Origin: Lasiosphaeria ovina
Lineage: Eukaryota > Ascomycota > Sordariomycetes > Sordariales > Lasiosphaeriaceae
Length of the DNA stretch: 64,000 nt
Assembly: GCA_033439765.1 (NCBI GenBank)
Contig: JAULSN010000009.1
Span: 806,001-870,000, forward strand
Direction: 5' to 3'
The notes under the pieces were generated by a model. The model ran no database searches and had not been told where the DNA came from. It saw only the letters and a program-made list of their open reading frames with translations. Positions 35,557 to 55,650 of this stretch are shown in pieces. Made by a program: the position numbers and the translations under genes. Every line of letters starts with the position of its first letter. The stretch's first letter is position 1.

Positions 35557-35890
35557 CAGCCTGATGCCCCCGAGCCGAGGTATAAGCGAAGTCCAAGCCA
35601 TCATTTCCACATACATACTCCGCTGGGCCCACAATCTAGTCACCACTTTCCTGCCCACGGCAAAGGCAAATACGGAGAACCTCCGTACCTTGTGATTACC
35701 CTCTCTCGTATACATGTCTTTCTCAGCCTAATGCCCCCGAGGCGAGGCATAAGCGAAGTTCAAGCCATTCTTTCCATATATATACTCCGCTATAGCCCAT
35801 AATCTAGTTATTACTTTCCTGCCTACGGCAAAGGCAAACACGGAGAACCCCGGTACCTTGTAATTACCCTCTCTCGCATACGTGTCTTTC
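35557..35890. repeat. Two-copy tandem repeat, period 167 bp
   Basis: The unit starting 'cagcctgatgcccccgagcc' at 35557 repeats at 35724 with a few percent divergence, including 'ataagcgaagt', 'ccgcta/gggccca' and 'ttaccctctctcg'. The second copy ends near 35890. Differences are mostly C/T transitions. Confidence 0.8.
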
Positions 35891-35967
35891 TCGGTTATTA
35901 AGTTACCGGCCAAAAAAGCCTGATTCCCCCCTCGCACCTATATATTCCTACCACGGCCCTGACTACC

Positions 35968-37371: not shown

Positions 37372-38078
37372 ATTAAGCAGACGGGTTAAATACGATGAGG
37401 ACGTGAAACCAGTCAATTTATATGCCAGAAAAAGCCGATGCATCTGAGTACAACGACCAAGAGTTGGCCAAGATACAAGACAAGGATCATATATTCTACT
37501 CACAGGACTATGTGGCCAATAAGAGAAATTAGTCATCCGGTAACACATCTAGCAACGGTCCGCTATCCCAATGTCCAGCATAACAAAAACTCTCTCTCAA
37601 GGTTGGTGCATAGGTAATGCTAATCAAGAACCTAAATGCTAAGCTAGTCAATGGTATAGTAGGACAAATAGTAAAGTTCATGTACCTTCCTGAGCGCAAG
37701 GACAGTTCTTTTCACAAGCAAGGAGAGATGGGTGTCAGCGTGCCTGTGGTAAGGTTCAACTTGGCTGACAAAAGAATGTTCATACAACCCATAGACTCCT
37801 CTGTATGGGAATCCAGGCACACCGAGAACAGCCTCATATGCAGCCGTAAGCAAATACCACTAATACTTGCTTGGGCCATAACCATACACAAGTCACAGGG
37901 TCAGACAATACAACACCTTAGGATAGATATGAATGGCATATTTGAGTTCGGCCAGGCATACACAGCAGTAAGCAGGGCAGTGTCACCACATACACTGGAA
38001 GTAGTAAACTACCACCCTAATGGTGTACGAGTAGACCCTGAAACATTCGAGTTCTGCAAAGAGCACGACCTGTTCTGA
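37372..38078 (+). pseudogene. Pif1-family helicase, C-terminal part
   Basis: Pif1 enzymes are 5'-3' superfamily 1B DNA helicases. Here the segment DVKPVNLYARK (about 37399-37431) is followed, after one extra A in a five-A run, by DASEYNDQELAKI. Later come LSLKVGA, an in-frame TAG exactly where Pif1 proteins have Gln, and VMLIKNLNAKLVNG. The open part 37617-38078 holds the conserved late motifs: PLILAWAITIHKSQGQT (motif V region) and FGQAYTAVSRA (motif VI with the arginine finger), ending naturally at TGA 38078. In-frame stops are TAG 37530, TAA 37581 and TAG 37611. Motifs I-IV (Walker A/B) are missing. The canonical spacing argues against a Helitron helicase, which has a different motif VI. 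Confidence 0.8.
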
Positions 38079-38165
38079 TTCACGGCATTACTTACTTTTA
38101 AAACTGATTATTTAAGCAACCTCGTTGCTTCAAGCACCGATTGGACCAGACACAATACCGTTACA

Positions 38166-38740
38166 ATGCAGCAAAGCTATACAGACAACAACGCAGGTAA
38201 TGCTGTACACACTAAGCCGCTATCCATACGCAGACATATAAAGGTGAACAATCATGTAAGTGTGGTAAATATATACGTGGATGGATCGTGCCTGGACAAT
38301 GGAACAGACAGGGCTATAGCTGGGATGGGCATCCACATAGGTGACACAGAGGGTCTAGACGTGAGCGATGGTGTACCAAGTGAGCTAAAGCAGACCAATC
38401 AGGTTGCGGAGCTTACCGCCATAAGACGAGCTTGCGATATAGTGAAGCAGCAGAGGTGGACAAAATGTAGCCATACATACTGACTCTGCTTATAGCATCA
38501 ACTGCCTTGGCATATGGTACGATAGCTGGAGAAACAGAGGATGGCTGACTACTAAGGGTACGACCCCGGAGAACCTTGATCTGATAAAGAGCACACATGG
38601 GATCATAGATAGCCTCAGGGAATCCAATGTGCGCGTAGAGCTGGTTGAGGTACGTGCCCATAGCACAGACGTTGGAAACAACAAAGCGAACAATCTTGCA
38701 GTAGCCGGGTCAACAGCTGCAAGGGTAAAGCTAGCGTTGG
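38166..38740 (+). pseudogene. Type I ribonuclease H, one-base frameshift
   Basis: RNase HI cleaves the RNA strand of RNA-DNA hybrids. From ATG 38166 the frame gives VVNIYVDGSCLDNG with the first catalytic Asp at codon 280-282 of 38 kb, AGMGIHIG, then QVAELTAI with the catalytic Glu at 38409-38411. An extra base in the acaaaatg run near 38465 shifts the frame; the continuation has HTDSAYSIN with the third acidic residue at 38482-38484, then RGWLTTKG and VRAHSTDVGNNKANNLA. The last catalytic position, normally Asp in the final helix, is Asn. It starts 88 bases after the helicase stop on the same strand. After about 38740 the frame runs on without a stop into the next region. Confidence 0.8.
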
Positions 38741-39950
38741 ATGCCACAACCACAGCGATGAGGTTGCACACGGATCCTACTGACATAGCTGCATTCAGTG
38801 GCATGGCTGAGAAGATAAGTGGGATACTAGATAAGCACAAGACTGTTCTCGATGCGGCCTCTGTGAACAGCTACGCGGGTGATGCTAGCACTGTGCCAAG
38901 GCATATGCCAAGTATGGAATACACCAACACAGAACCTGATCCTAGGATATTGGCAGATGATAGCAGAATCAGTTTGCCAAAGATGGAAATTGAGCTGGGT
39001 ATAGCCATACACATGATAGAAGAAGTGGGTTCAAGACTGGCTGTAGTAGAGAGTCGATTAGATAACATAGAGAGTAATCTAACGAATATGGCTAACGACT
39101 TTAACTCGTACTTCGGGAATGCTGGAATGAAATTGAATCAGGTATTGACAAGGGTTCGTGGACAATCTAGAGGAGCTCAACGAGCCACTGATGGACAAGT
39201 TGAACTATACAGTCAGGAAGAGACAGCTCTGGTCACTGAGAGACACTGGTGCATGCCTCAAGGTACGTGGCTCTGGTTGGAGCTACAACGGAGTACCGCT
39301 CCGGGGAAACATACACACAGCAGTGGATATGCTAGCTATGTCCTTTGGGTCACCACTAAGTGTACATTCTAATCACGCATGGATAGAGTCCATGGGGGCT
39401 AAAGATAGTACTTTCTCAATGGGAATATACACACAGCCTCTGGAGACCACAGCCGTTCCTGGAGTAAATGGCACAATACAGAACTGCCAATTAGTCGATC
39501 TGGCTACAGAAGGCGATAATGAGTATCCCGACGAGGAATACAGAAATGAGTTTATAGACACATACGATGGATTCCTATGTAGATTGTTCACGCCACATAC
39601 TGCTGAAGCCGGTCGTGTGAGAAGAGTGTGTTCTAATATTTACGTGAGGATCCTATGAAATGCCATGATATCTCGGCTTCAACAGGGTATAAGCATAGCC
39701 TCGCGCTACGAAAATGGAACAAAGCAATAGATACTGTACTATATGGGTAAGTTTGTCAAGTGCACGTCTGGATCTATATATGCACTAAGAAATTACCTAG
39801 TATCGTCATCTTTCACCAGCCCACATAGTGCTACAATATACATTGATGTGGACACACGTTGTGCTATGGTAGGGATATCATCCGGTACACTAATGCGGCG
39901 TGACTCAAAAGAGATGCTAGTAGACACACTCTCCATGAAGAAGTCATCAT
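38740..39950 (+). pseudogene. Coiled-coil protein followed by RNA polymerase second-subunit-like region
   Basis: The RNase H frame continues into helices with SRLAVVESRLDNIESNL-type heptads. An extra G in agggtt (39151-39154) moves the reading to the frame LEELNEPLMDKLNYTVRK and a globular-looking region. At 39569-39628 this contains G-x2-C-x3-T-P-x5-G-x-V-R, the spacing of the 'GxxCPxxTPEGxxxGxVxxL' motif of Rpb2/beta subunits. After TGA 39656 and TAG 39728 the same frame resumes and includes ATIYIDVDTRCAMVGIS, comparable to the 'VFVNGxWVGI' strand that follows in Rpb2. Whether the RNase H and this region are one fused protein or two genes is not clear. The polymerase call rests on motif spacing alone. 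Confidence 0.4.
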
Positions 39951-43339: not shown

Positions 43340-43460
43340 CTCCACTGGTGGAAAGACACCACAACAACAAAAACAATAGTAAAACCAGGGCGAACCTTGG
43401 CGGGCGCAAGCGCAAGGTCCCCTCACAAGAAGGTCAAAGCAATAAGAAAAAGGCACTACT
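43340..43460 (+). repeat. Dispersed repeat, inverted copy at 55150-55262
   Basis: About 115 bases (ggtggaaagacaccacaaca..., aggtcccctcacaagaaggt) match the reverse complement of 55150-55262 with roughly 80-90 percent identity by eye. Both encode a Lys/Arg/Asn-rich peptide. Probably part of an unrecognised dispersed element. Confidence 0.65.
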
Positions 43461-43779
43461 GCGTGTAAAGCTATATTCTCTAATCCAACTATCTTACACG
43501 GCAGAGTCTTCCATTCCTTCTTACCGCTCTCGTTGCTTCTCGACCCTCCGTTTCGCTTAACCCTCCGTTCCCTCTCAATTCTCCCATCAAATCAATTCCT
43601 GGCCCTGCAGCGAGTCCAAATTACCAACCAGCTTCTCCAAACCCACCAGCATAGCCTCCAGGACAAATCAGCTACAGCTCACCCCAGCTCAGTATTGCGA
43701 ATGAAAAAGGAAATTTCGTGCGCCCAGATTCGTCGTAGACAACCAGGCTGTTTTTTCTCCCTTTCTTACGCCCGGAATG

Positions 43780-51934: not shown

Positions 51935-52272
51935 TAGGGAGGAAGAAAACCATGTGTACGAGGCAATTGCAAGGTAGTAAGTAAGGTGCTCCGTTTTTTG
52001 AACTGGTGATCAGGGGCTCAGGGGCTCAGGGGCTGGACAACAAGGGGGGTTGTTTATACCCTTGCCTAATATAATATAGTGTAATTTTCTTTTTTCCTTC
52101 CCTTTTCTTGACTCACCCACCTCCTATAAGGAGGACTGCCGCCCTCCCTCTAATTAGAGGCCGGTATGGCTGGAGGGGACCTCCATCTCTCTCTTCTTCT
52201 TTTTTAGGGACAGTCCTCAGAAAAATCACGTCTTTTTACCATGAATTGAGATCCCCAGACCAGTGCACGTAG
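51786..52272. repeat. Microsatellite stretch between the LTR element and pogo element
   Basis: A CT run followed by a CA run occupies 51877-51934. Its flanks (ggggactttgcttttctctc before, aggcaattgcaaggtagtaa after) recur around the CA run at 56520-56578 and in weaker form inside the MITE at 55875-55945, marking a dispersed repeat that carries a variable microsatellite. 'aggggctcaggggct' is tandemly repeated near 52011-52033. No gene. Confidence 0.5.
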
Positions 52273-52416: not shown

Positions 52417-54853
52417 TCAATCCATACGTTGTGCTGGCACACGAAGTGCAAAGCCAGATCTTTTCAGTCTTGCAGGCAACTCTTCTTCTTCAGCCTCTTC
52501 ATCAGCCTCACCTTCATCATCCACCTCTTCAATTTGAGGCTCTGCTTGAGGCTCGAGTTGCGGCTCTGCAGGAACATAGCCGCCTAGTAGTATAGTCCCT
52601 AGGTCCATGGACCGCCTGTTAGGATTGGGAATTTTCCTTCGTTTTTTGGGGCCTAATGCGCTCCAGTTGAGCCTCCAGGGCTTCAATACGGTGTTGCTCG
52701 AGAACCAACTCGGACTGAAGCTTCTCAACGGCTGCCGCAGCTTTCTGGAGCTTCCATCTCGTCCGGGGACTGCTTCCTTTGCTAAAATCCCTAATATGAC
52801 GCCCTGTAGTCTGTGTACTAGGGACTCCGGAGAGGACAGGGGGTTCAGGGGTCTTTGCCCTGTCTTGCTGAATCTCTGGGTGGCTCATGGTTTTTGGCCT
52901 ATTAACAGGCCAATATCCGGTCGTCCGGAATGATGATTTGATGGTTTTTTCTGTCAATGCTTCCTCCCTGGCTACCTTGTAGCAGCGAATGAAGTTGATC
53001 TTGTCAATAGGTGCTGCGTCAGTTAGACTAGCCAACTTTGGAGTTGAAAGGCCCGTTGTCAAGTGGCTGTAAGCCGTGAGAGGTGTGGGCCGACATAAAG
53101 CAAAGGTATGTATTGTTTAGGCCGCATATCGCCATGAAGTCGTCCTATATATATATAAATATATTGTGAGATTACTGGATGAAAGAGCATCAAGGACTTA
53201 TCTCGTACAATCATGTGGCTGCCGTGGCCATCAAGAGTAAGAAGCTGAGCCTCAATTTCGTAGTCCAGGAACCTGTCGGTTTGTGGAATAAAAATATCCT
53301 CAAGCCAGCTGATCGCTATTTGGTTGTCAGTCCAGCCCTTTTCTGTGGCAACGAAGCGCTAGTTGCAGATTTCTGCATTTGCTCTTCAAACCGCGATGTT
53401 TGAAGGTCTTTTCCTTTAAAAATGCTCCCGGATCGAGTGCGAGGCCCCCGGCACCGATGCATTCGATCATGGTGGACCAGCCACGACCTTGGTCGCTTTT
53501 CAGGTAGGATTTCTTCGTCTCTGACGTCCTTAGGACAATGAATCAAGCCCTATATAGTATGAGTAATAGATAATATAGCTAGGTATTATTTACTTACCAA
53601 AGCCCGCCATAATGCCGGCCTTATCGACGTTGAAGGTAAGCTCAGGCCTGATCCAGTCGTAATCTTTCTCCCTCATATTAAAGTACTAGTTGACGGCTTT
53701 GGGATTAAACCCGTTAAAACGAGCGGCTTTCATTCTCTTACCTACTTTAGCTCATTTGAAACTCGCGGGGGAGGCCAGAACCCGCCCCCCTCATATCGCC
53801 ACGGCAATATGACCTGGTTTCTGGTATCGGCTATTCGGAGTTAATCTCGGGCGATTAATGACATTACTGCCGCCGCACTCGAACGGGGAGACTTGGCAAT
53901 TGAATCAAGAGGCTGCGCGGTAGGTGCTCTCCGGGAAAATCGACTGCTAGTGTTATTTCGGTGCCCTGTGTGGTGTGCGAAACCGGAAGACTCTAATTTA
54001 AAGAGTGGCGAGTTGACCGAGACCGAGTTGCGGAGAGATAGCTTGTTATTGTCCTAACCCAGATCTATCGCAACGGATCGTCAGCTCCGGTTAAAAATAG
54101 ATTGAGAGGTATCGATCGGGCAAGGATTCAGCAGAGCCGCAATCCCCTTTCGTCAGAACGATTGGCAGCCTCGAATATTGGTTTTCGCGCTGTTGGCTAA
54201 ATAAGCTTTCTGGACGGGGGCTGCTGGGTGGTATATATCCAAGTTTAAACCTCCAGGTTATTGTCAGGTCCATACCAGCCGAAGCCAGTGAAGTGGCTCA
54301 GCTGGCCTGACTGGGGCGCAAAAAAAGTCAAGTATCTCGAAACCCAAACGCGGAAACAAAAGCTTAATAACGCGGCAGCCGGGGAAAAATGAAAGCATAT
54401 TTGAAATCTAAAATCGGCTACGACCGAGGAGGTCAAGGGTTCAATTCCCGGCTGCGGGAGAAAAAAAAAATGAATAAGAAAAAAATGCGTCCCAACAAAA
54501 AAAGAAAATGAACCCTTGACCTTTTGCTATTTTAGCTCGAATATCAGCCCTACAGGATCTTTTTGCCCTGCTTCTTTACAGAGTCTTGTAGTAATGCTAC
54601 ATAGTGCTGAGTAACTCGGAGCAAAGCCGAGTATTTCCTGCTTGACGATCCAGTCAATGAACCGCTTTTCTTGAGGCTCTGTGAGCCTGCGTTGTGTTTG
54701 GAGGACTTCTTTTTTGGGGGGGACTCTTCTGAGTCGTCGGTTCAACGTTGTATAAGGAAGTCCATGCTTTTGAGCCGCTTTACGAATAGAAAGCTTGTTA
54801 TCTGTGACGTCTAGGTATGCATTGACTATATTATCGTCACTTTTTTCAGACAT
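52417..54853 (-). pseudogene. pogo/Fot1-like transposase (split, frameshifted)
   Basis: The N-terminal helix-turn-helix segment (54853-54540) has SIRKAAQKHGLPYTTLNRRL (psq-type) and RLTEPQEKRFIDWIVKQEILG (CENP-B type). After the insertion, 53750-53600 has MKAARFNGFNPKAVN, TAG in place of Gln, and ELTFNVDKAGIMAGFG carrying the first catalytic Asp. Near 53232 LLTLDGHGSH carries the second Asp. 53062-52614 has APIDKINFIRCYKVAREEALT and TIKSSFRTTGYWPVNR, then a coiled coil. A frameshift at a T6G4 run near 52650 leads to the acidic C-terminus ending at 52417. DDE_1 transposases cut and paste DNA at TA. Stops, frameshifts and the insertion make this copy inactive. Confidence 0.75.
53754..54530. mobile_element. 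777-bp nested insertion with 8-bp target duplication
   Basis: The transposase coding sequence is interrupted between 53753 and 54531. TTTAGCTC occurs at 53746-53753 and again at 54531-54538, as a target duplication would. The insert has no coding capacity. It contains a tRNA-like A-box word (tggctcagctgg, 54292-54303) and a B-box word (gggttcaattcc, 54437-54448), then an A-rich stretch. An exact 14-bp inverted repeat joins 54430-54443 and 54509-54522, and 'gcagccggg' (54374) pairs with 'cccggctgc' (54447). It could be a tRNA-derived SINE-like element or a non-autonomous hAT (8-bp duplication). Confidence 0.55.
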
Positions 54854-55149
54854 TGTGGTGGTATAAGTTACTATTCACACTCAAAGGTAGGGGGAGAAGA
54901 ATGTCAGGAAGCTAATTTTGAGTTAATTTGGAGTCACTTTGCGACGATGTAGCGAAAAGAGTAGGGCTTGTGGGCTGACAAATCTACACTAAGATTAAAC
55001 TGCATGCAATCCCATAACTCGGTCAATTGTTTGCTTGCGAATAGCTTCATAATTGACTACGTTATTGTTGTTCAAAAAGGGAGTGTTTTGGTGTAAAGGG
55101 TGATCCACTGCTAGGGTGATCCGTTGGGGGGTTGGGGGGTGGGGTATGG

Positions 55150-55262
55150 TAGTGCCTTTTTTTTATTGTTTTGACCCTCTTGTGAGGGGACCTTGCACTT
55201 GTGACCGCTAACTTTCGCCCTGATTTTACTGTTGTTTTTGGTGTTGTGGTGTTTTTCCACCG
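55150..55262 (-). repeat. Dispersed repeat, copy of 43340-43460
   Basis: Reverse-complement partner of 43340-43460. It lies immediately outside the pogo element's right end, so the element inserted beside or into this repeat. Confidence 0.65.
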
Positions 55263-55267
55263 CTTCA

Positions 55268-55650
55268 CTAGCTAAGAGCTGGATTGTTGTTGAATTCCAC
55301 GCCAGACGAGTTTGGCTGGTTATACATGCCGTAGCCCGACTGGGGGATGTGTTGCACCTGCATGCTGAGGAGCATGCGAAGCTGCTCGTCGAGGCTCCTC
55401 CTCGCACGTTTCGACTCCGGCGTGAAGCTCTCGTGGAGCTCCCTATGCCTCCGCTGCCAGTCGCGCCTCATCTCGGTCTCTTTCTCGCGCTATTCGCCAT
55501 CCTCTTTCCCGCCGCCCGGCAACTTCTTCCGCGCTTCTTCCAACTCTTTGACCTGCCCCCTCCTCTCCTTTAGTTCGGTTTCTGGACGCGAGCATTCGGC
55601 ATGCAGGTCGCCGTTTTCTACACGAAAACGTTCAGCTTTCTCATCCCGTC
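55268..55650 (-). pseudogene. Coiled-coil protein C-terminus with one TAG
   Basis: Reading right to left, a frame has ENGDLHAECSRPETELKERR, KELEEARKKLPGGG, an in-frame TAG, then EKETEMRRDWQRRHRELHESF and DEQLRMLLSMQVQHIPQSG before a stop at 55268. It is a charged helical protein with a Gln/Asn/Gly tail. Upstream, the sequence is replaced by microsatellites and the MITE. Unknown function; it may belong to an unrecognised transposon. Confidence 0.35.

What the first reader, a model, noticed from the sequence alone, without database searches (positions are those of the whole stretch)
37372..39950. Captured fragment of an undescribed large DNA replicon (virus-like) in a fungal genome
A 2.6-kb island has lower GC, ATA-rich codon usage and intronless, tightly packed plus-strand genes: Pif1 helicase C-terminus, RNase HI and a probable RNA polymerase second-subunit-like region. 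The surroundings are GC-rich fungal DNA with introns and transposons. The combination of DNA-processing helicase, RNase H and polymerase fits a large dsDNA virus, jumbo phage or plasmid-like replicon, and does not match any transposon in the window. Both edges cut genes, so more of the source genome may lie elsewhere in the assembly. Chimeric assembly or contamination is the main alternative.
Basis: partly seen in the sequence, partly recalled or inferred. Interest (0 to 1): 0.92.

Follow-up and report, generated by a model that had tools for sequence, protein, structure and literature searches.

The report
Decayed DNA-virus fragments in a fungus
A fungal chromosome carries at least two small, decayed pieces that look as if they came from the same unknown large DNA virus, which matters because hardly any large DNA viruses of fungi are known.

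Summary
The island is real. Over 37.38-39.95 kb GC is 45.5% (window 54.1%). Three plus-strand coding stretches follow one another, all broken: a PIF1-type helicase C-terminus, an RNase HI with an extended tail, and an orphan whose RNA-polymerase identity could not be confirmed. They are not host copies: the host's PIF1 and RNase H1 lie on other contigs. In trees the helicase forms a supported clade with two unnamed database proteins, beside the host's nuclear PIF1 and apart from the phage and bacterial rows included.

Outside the window, about 170 kb away on the same contig, I found a second low-GC island (46%) with a broken, very divergent B-family DNA polymerase and a weakly supported P-loop piece. 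Both islands use ATA for 82% of isoleucines (40/49 and 18/22; host genes 18/199), so they probably share one source. Neither looks RIP-mutated. Island B also holds a dispersed repeat and an 87-bp scrap of a host gene.

Best reading: decayed captures from one undescribed large dsDNA virus, probably of fungi. No capsid or packaging gene was found, so its lineage is open; a non-viral replicon or foreign nuclear DNA is not excluded.

The parts
37379..39946 (+). Island A: decayed virus-like fragment, single copy in the genome at DNA level
   Evidence: edges are where coding resemblance and low GC stop, so about +-20 bp
37379..37613 (+). Broken upstream part of the helicase (frame change, three in-frame stops)
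   Evidence: translation; genome search with P0002 matches from 37536; of four pieces compared with P0002 one beats all 300 shuffles, the others do not
37614..38078 (+). PIF1-type helicase, C-terminal 154 residues and stop
38166..38459 (+). RNase HI, first part (no hybrid-binding domain seen ahead of it)
38461..39139 (+). RNase HI, second part after a frame change, with an extended tail that looks coiled-coil-like by eye
39152..39658 (+). Orphan coding stretch; RNA polymerase subunit-B motif suspected by eye, not confirmed
   Evidence: ATA 5 of 7 Ile
39731..39946 (+). Further open frame, probably the same orphan after another frame change
   Evidence: ATA 4 of 5 Ile

Best explanation
Island A is a decayed piece of the genome of an undescribed large double-stranded DNA virus (or virus-like replicon) captured into a fungal chromosome. 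A second piece of the same source lies about 170 kb away on the same contig (C32, about 672.2-674.5 kb; island A is 843.4-845.9 kb). Likely route (inferred): viral DNA present in the cell served as filler in the repair of double-strand breaks, or one longer insertion was later broken up. The pieces were not domesticated; they decayed by frame changes and stops, and in island B by insertion of a repeat. In the source genome the recognisable genes served DNA replication: family-B DNA polymerase, PIF1 helicase, RNase H and perhaps a P-loop helicase. Shown: both islands, the polymerase, helicase and RNase H identities, the decay, the shared GC and codon signature. Inferred: viral nature, single source, fungal host range, route of capture.
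For: Tandem, intronless, broken replication genes in a low-GC single-copy island. Second island with a divergent PolB: PF00136 27.8 bits over cut-off 23, PHROG polymerases 7e-9 to 4e-6, no PF03175 (protein-primed) hit. Same GC (45.5 vs 46.0 and 46.2%) and same ATA share (40/49 vs 18/22, Fisher p=1; each against host 18/199: 2e-23 and 4e-13). Helicase clade with P0002 and P0003 at 100/94, stable without P0003 (100/92). Host orthologues exist elsewhere (L002, L090). RIP-type depletion absent: (CA+TG)/(AC+GT) 1.21 and 1.05 against 0.42 in a nearby RIP-like stretch.
Against: No virion or packaging gene: the one capsid model tried (PF04451) gave 0 hits, with a control that could not ring. No extra RNA polymerase subunit loci beyond the host's. 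The P-loop piece is weak (PHROG 0.003 and 0.03; PF19263 0 hits in the genome; no solved structure). Helicase and RNase H have fungal-type best named matches, which nuclear DNA of another fungus would also give. No related viral contig was found: 8 viral-contig scans gave only distant helicases and three subunit-B loci. The first RIP index (TA/AT 0.97-1.05) is above the usual threshold (recalled, 0.89), the second is not RIP-like. The single-source case rests on 22 Ile codons in island B, 9 of them from the P-loop piece.
Confidence: 0.68

Rival explanations
1. Foreign nuclear DNA: pieces of the genome of another, compact and intron-poor eukaryote (for example a parasitic or yeast-like fungus) taken up by horizontal transfer.
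For: Helicase and RNase H are of eukaryotic, fungus-like kind; PIF1, RNase H1 and a family-B polymerase are all normal cellular genes.
Against: Only replication genes are recognisable in two separate pieces; the polymerase is far from the host's polymerases (at most 28.5 bits); the third gene has no relative among 5.8 billion proteins within the tool's length limits, which would be odd for a cellular gene.
Confidence: 0.15
2. A non-viral selfish replicon, such as a large plasmid or a virus-derived transposon, that carries its own replication genes.
For: Replication genes without any virion gene; fungal plasmids and large elements are known (recalled).
Against: The polymerase matches PF00136 and not the protein-primed family at E<=1; no integrase or transposase was recognised in the island frames tested; the Helitron helicase scores only 23.8 bits.
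Confidence: 0.09
3. Chimeric assembly or contamination.
For: Composition differs sharply at both edges; reads are not available.
Against: The contig is 2.5 Mb of a 32-contig assembly; the pieces are broken genes; island B contains a repeat found at many places of the genome and an 87-bp piece of a host gene.
Confidence: 0.05
4. Diverged host pseudogenes or RIP-mutated host DNA.
For: Fungus-like helicase and RNase H; the genome does hold a RIP-like stretch at C32:678001-684500, and RIP can raise ATA.
Against: 33-35% identity to the host's own genes, less than to P0001 or P0002; second RIP index not RIP-like; ATA bias is strongest in the coding frames.
Confidence: 0.03

Closest known systems
Endogenous giant-virus region of Rhizophagus irregularis (PMC10640383; abstract and passages seen)
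   Same: DNA of a large dsDNA virus in a fungal chromosome with composition unlike the host; includes a family-B DNA polymerase and lacks a detected major capsid gene
   Different: There 1.5 Mb in one block and related to Asfarviridae; here at least two pieces of 2-3 kb, decayed, lineage unknown, host probably a filamentous ascomycete
Mesomimiviridae single-virion genomes with putative ascomycete hosts (PMC9894930; abstract and one section seen)
   Same: Large DNA virus thought to infect Ascomycota, with genes of fungal origin
Eukaryotic nuclear PIF1 helicase and RNase H1
   Same: Same domain families; helicase groups beside the host's PIF1; RNase H 48% identical to P0001 over 84 residues
   Different: Separate helicase clade with P0002 and P0003; RNase H without the N-terminal domains of the fungal enzyme and with an extended tail; ATA codon use
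Phage Dda-like helicases and RNase HI (PHROG 325, 531)
   Same: Same domain families; PHROG 531 gives the best profile score for the RNase H (84 bits)
   Different: Single-sequence similarity is lower than to fungal proteins: helicase 78.6 bits at best for 80 bacterial loci and 90.9 for viral contigs against 96.3 for host PIF1 and 117 for P0002 (scores are HMMER's); RNase H 58 against 82 bits

Membership tests
Endogenous Nucleocytoviricota | Double jelly-roll major capsid protein | tested here: inconclusive
   PF04451: 0 hits in the genome at E<=1, but no control rang either
Endogenous Nucleocytoviricota | Family-B DNA polymerase of the viral clade | tested here: inconclusive
   A PolB is present in island B but about 70 aligned residues and no viral reference set do not allow a placement
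Endogenous Nucleocytoviricota | Viral RNA polymerase subunits | tested here: inconclusive
   Orphan 39149-39655 not significant against six subunit-B proteins; PF04565, PF00562 and PF00623 ring only at what look like the host's three polymerases
Endogenous Nucleocytoviricota | D5 primase-helicase | tested here: inconclusive
   P-loop piece in island B, PHROG primase/polymerase 0.03 and 0.003; PF19263 0 hits
Endogenous Nucleocytoviricota | A32 packaging ATPase, VLTF3 | not tested
Mirusviricota | HK97-fold capsid, terminase, portal | not tested
   No model searched
Caudoviricetes (jumbo phage) | Helicase and RNase H group with phage proteins | tested here: not met
   Helicase outside the phage and bacterial rows in 56- and 64-row trees; both RNase H pieces nearer to fungal P0001 than to four phage enzymes
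Protein-primed PolB elements (Polintons, linear plasmids) | Polymerase of family PF03175 | tested here: not met
   Only PF00136 at E<=1 for the 108-aa piece
Helitron | Helicase nearest to Helitron helicases; Rep domain | tested here: not met
   Helraiser 23.8 bits against 91 bits for the best PIF1 chain; the Rep domain was not searched
Ordinary host gene | Host-like composition and codon use; near identity to a host paralogue | tested here: not met

The most novel reading that the evidence does not exclude
The islands are remains of a large dsDNA virus lineage that infects filamentous ascomycetes and belongs to no described viral group. It would carry a very divergent family-B polymerase, a PIF1 helicase and an RNase H of fungus-like kind, an unrecognised third gene (possibly a strongly altered RNA polymerase subunit) and a codon preference with ATA for 82% of isoleucines. 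P0002 (on a 198.7-kb contig) and P0003 would be relatives.
Probability: 0.3. Interest if true: 0.87.

Novelty: new variant of a known kind. Interest (0 to 1): 0.63.

Why it matters
PMC10640383 (abstract and passages seen) states that no double-stranded DNA virus infecting fungi was known in 2023; the evidence it names is endogenous sequence in early-diverging fungi and single-virion genomes with putative ascomycete hosts. Two fragments with a shared codon signature in what is probably a filamentous ascomycete would be a fossil record of such infections. The codon signature and the helicase clade also give a handle for searching other fungal assemblies, so that the question whether ascomycetes have large DNA viruses becomes testable.

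Tried and rejected
RNA polymerase identity of the orphan: six subunit-B sequences (three host, three from viral contigs) as HMM and as hhalign profile gave no significant match. AlphaFold2 on the single orphan piece gave mean pLDDT 34, so no fold search was run. The hairpin between helicase and RNase H (about 38114-38130), first taken for a transcript-end signal, folds no better than shuffles (z -0.54). A third island on contig C1, suggested by an 87-bp match and a weak P0002 hit (E 0.84), was rejected: the place lies in a host gene that looks like a WD40-repeat protein by eye, of which a scrap lies in island B. The contexts of helicase hits L009 and L014 look bacterial/prophage and phage by eye; the other viral-contig contexts were not annotated. 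No tRNA gene in the window. A codon scan (at least 45 aa, at least 5 Ile, ATA share at least 0.7, GC under 51%) lists all five island A frames and three island B frames, but also five short frames elsewhere in the window, one each in L345, L346 and L188 and nine in the RIP-like L344, so it is not specific by itself. Codon counts took the first RNase H piece one base out of frame; one search is the corrected count and the one used. Rows dropped before trees: database proteins under 140 aa and rows with under 100 aligned residues (56 of 75 kept), ten long or redundant rows left out, and 18 of the 80 bacterial loci added.

Full report
What is there. The window is C32:806001-870000 of a 51.7-Mb, 32-contig genome. 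Between about 37.38 and 39.95 kb GC is 45.5% against 54.1% for the window. A DNA search of the own genome with the stretch finds only itself. It holds, on the plus strand, the C-terminus of a PIF1-type helicase (37614-38078), an RNase HI in two frames (38166-38459 and 38461-~39139) and an orphan in at least two frames (39152-39658, 39731-39946). The helicase reaches left to about 37379 through one frame change and three in-frame stops. Its upstream pieces, compared one by one, follow the order of the nearest database relative P0002; one of the four beats all 300 shuffles and three do not (12, 68 and 28 of 300 reach the score). A genome search with P0002 matches from window 37536 at 47% identity with two stops inside. 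So this is a decayed fragment, not a set of working genes.

Helicase. Among solved structures it scores 91 and 85 bits with two chains named ATP-dependent DNA helicase PIF1 (8xak, 7otj; yeast and Candida by recall), 66 bits with another set (6hph, human by recall), 31-37 bits with Pif1-type proteins recalled as bacterial, and 23.8 with the Helitron helicase Helraiser. Trees of 56 and 64 rows put the island with P0002 and P0003 (100/88 and 100/94). In the second tree that clade sits in a 16-row group (100/98) with the host's nuclear PIF1, one named basidiomycete protein (P0027) and unnamed rows, apart from the phage and bacterial rows included. The pairing with P0002 holds without P0003 (100/92). 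The island's branch is long, so its exact place is unsure. By BLAST the host PIF1 scores 96.3 bits, the best viral contig 90.9 and the best of the bacterial loci 78.6. P0002 seems to begin in mid-protein, so its gene may also be interrupted or spliced (inference).

RNase H. Both pieces are nearer to a fungal RNase H1 (P0001, Xylariomycetidae; 82 and 59 bits) than to the host's own (60 and 35 bits) or to four phage enzymes (at most 58 and 23 bits). P0001 was the only hit at E<=0.001 among 1357 candidates. A PHROG profile of phage RNase H scores 84 bits on the second piece; profile and single-sequence scores are not comparable, and no fungal profile was at hand.

Orphan. hhalign puts its best spot on the subunit-B fork motif, but with E 0.46 and probability 0.1%, and in an HMM search shuffled versions head the list while the piece itself is not in the part shown. 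No relative was found in viral contigs, phages or the protein database. I keep it as an orphan. Nine of its 12 Ile codons are ATA, which agrees with coding.

Second island. A search of the own genome with the DNA polymerase B family returned five places: three strong ones and one short one in long open frames, taken as host polymerases, and a broken piece at C32:673324-673776, minus strand, about 170 kb from island A. The 108-aa frame matches PF00136 at 27.8 bits (cut-off 23) and three PHROG polymerase families at 7e-9 to 4e-6. The best solved polymerases are 'DNA polymerase II' (26.5 bits) and pol alpha (24.8); host polymerases give at most 28.5 bits by BLAST. A following frame (L165 1447-1629, minus) looks by eye like the next part of such a polymerase, but Pfam, PHROG and structure searches did not confirm that. 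The PF00136 match needs a cellular/RNA-primed type of polymerase rather than the protein-primed family, which did not ring. Beyond it lie a dispersed repeat of about 380 bp (46 places, of which one is the island itself, one a C1 host gene and 44 match the repeat part; 40 of 68 candidates scored), a plus-strand P-loop frame (weak), and an 87-bp piece of the C1 host gene (96.6% identical).

One source. GC is 45.5% for island A and 46.0 and 46.2% for two parts of island B. Their second RIP index is 1.21, 1.05 and 1.18, against 0.42 in a RIP-like stretch nearby; their TA/AT index (0.97-1.05) is raised. ATA makes up 40 of 49 Ile codons in island A and 18 of 22 in island B, against 18 of 199 in four host gene stretches and 31% in all frames of the rest of the window, where 2 of 144 600-bp frames reach 75%. 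In island A the preference is strongest in the coding frames. The P-loop piece, 7 of 9, was included after its weak match had been seen; without it island B has 11 of 13. RIP can also make ATA-rich frames, as in L344, so this is support and not proof.

Interpretation. The recognisable genes all serve DNA replication and processing, are tandem and intronless, differ from the host in composition and codon use, and have decayed in place. Captured pieces of one large DNA virus explain this best. The fungus-like helicase and RNase H suggest a virus that has exchanged genes with fungi (inference). Against it stand the lack of any virion gene, of which only one capsid model was tried, and the small number of genes. 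Foreign nuclear DNA or a non-viral replicon remain possible. The patchwork in island B (virus-like DNA, host-gene scrap, repeat) fits capture during break repair, but that is inference.

Literature. PMC10640383 (abstract, passages) states that no dsDNA virus infecting fungi was known and describes a 1.5-Mb Asfarviridae-related region in Rhizophagus; PMC9894930 (abstract, one section) reports mesomimivirus genomes with putative ascomycete hosts. My nine searches listed no title on such fragments in a filamentous ascomycete; the listed papers were otherwise not read, and the library lacks most subscription journals and preprints. That the host is a filamentous ascomycete is itself an inference, from its RNase H1 (58% identical to P0001 over the last 118 residues) and the RIP-like stretch.

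Noticed in passing
Contig C32:about 672.2-674.5 kb (L165, L179), outside the window: Second virus-like island: broken PolB on the minus strand, dispersed repeat, P-loop frame, 87-bp scrap of a host gene that lies on C1.
   Followed up: partly
L344, C32:678001-684500: Strongly AT-rich stretch (38.6% GC, TA/AT 1.50, second index 0.42) a few kb from island B, looks like RIP-mutated repeat DNA.
   Followed up: partly
window 43346-43465, 52010-52269, 55149-55270: Pieces of the same dispersed ~380-bp repeat that sits in island B; a TCAGGGGC tandem array lies at 52010-52034.
   Followed up: no
window 54527-54874, minus strand: Frame that looks by eye like the N-terminus of a pogo/Tc1-type transposase; it lies in the other low-GC part of the window (51.5-55 kb).
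   Followed up: no
L003 (C29:1996232-1996549) and L004 (C28:753655-754041): Further PIF1-like places in the genome, the first in an 874-aa open frame, the second with two in-frame stops; possibly Helitron-type or other PIF1 relatives.
   Followed up: no
window 35557-35892: Two-copy tandem repeat of 168 bp left of the island.
   Followed up: no
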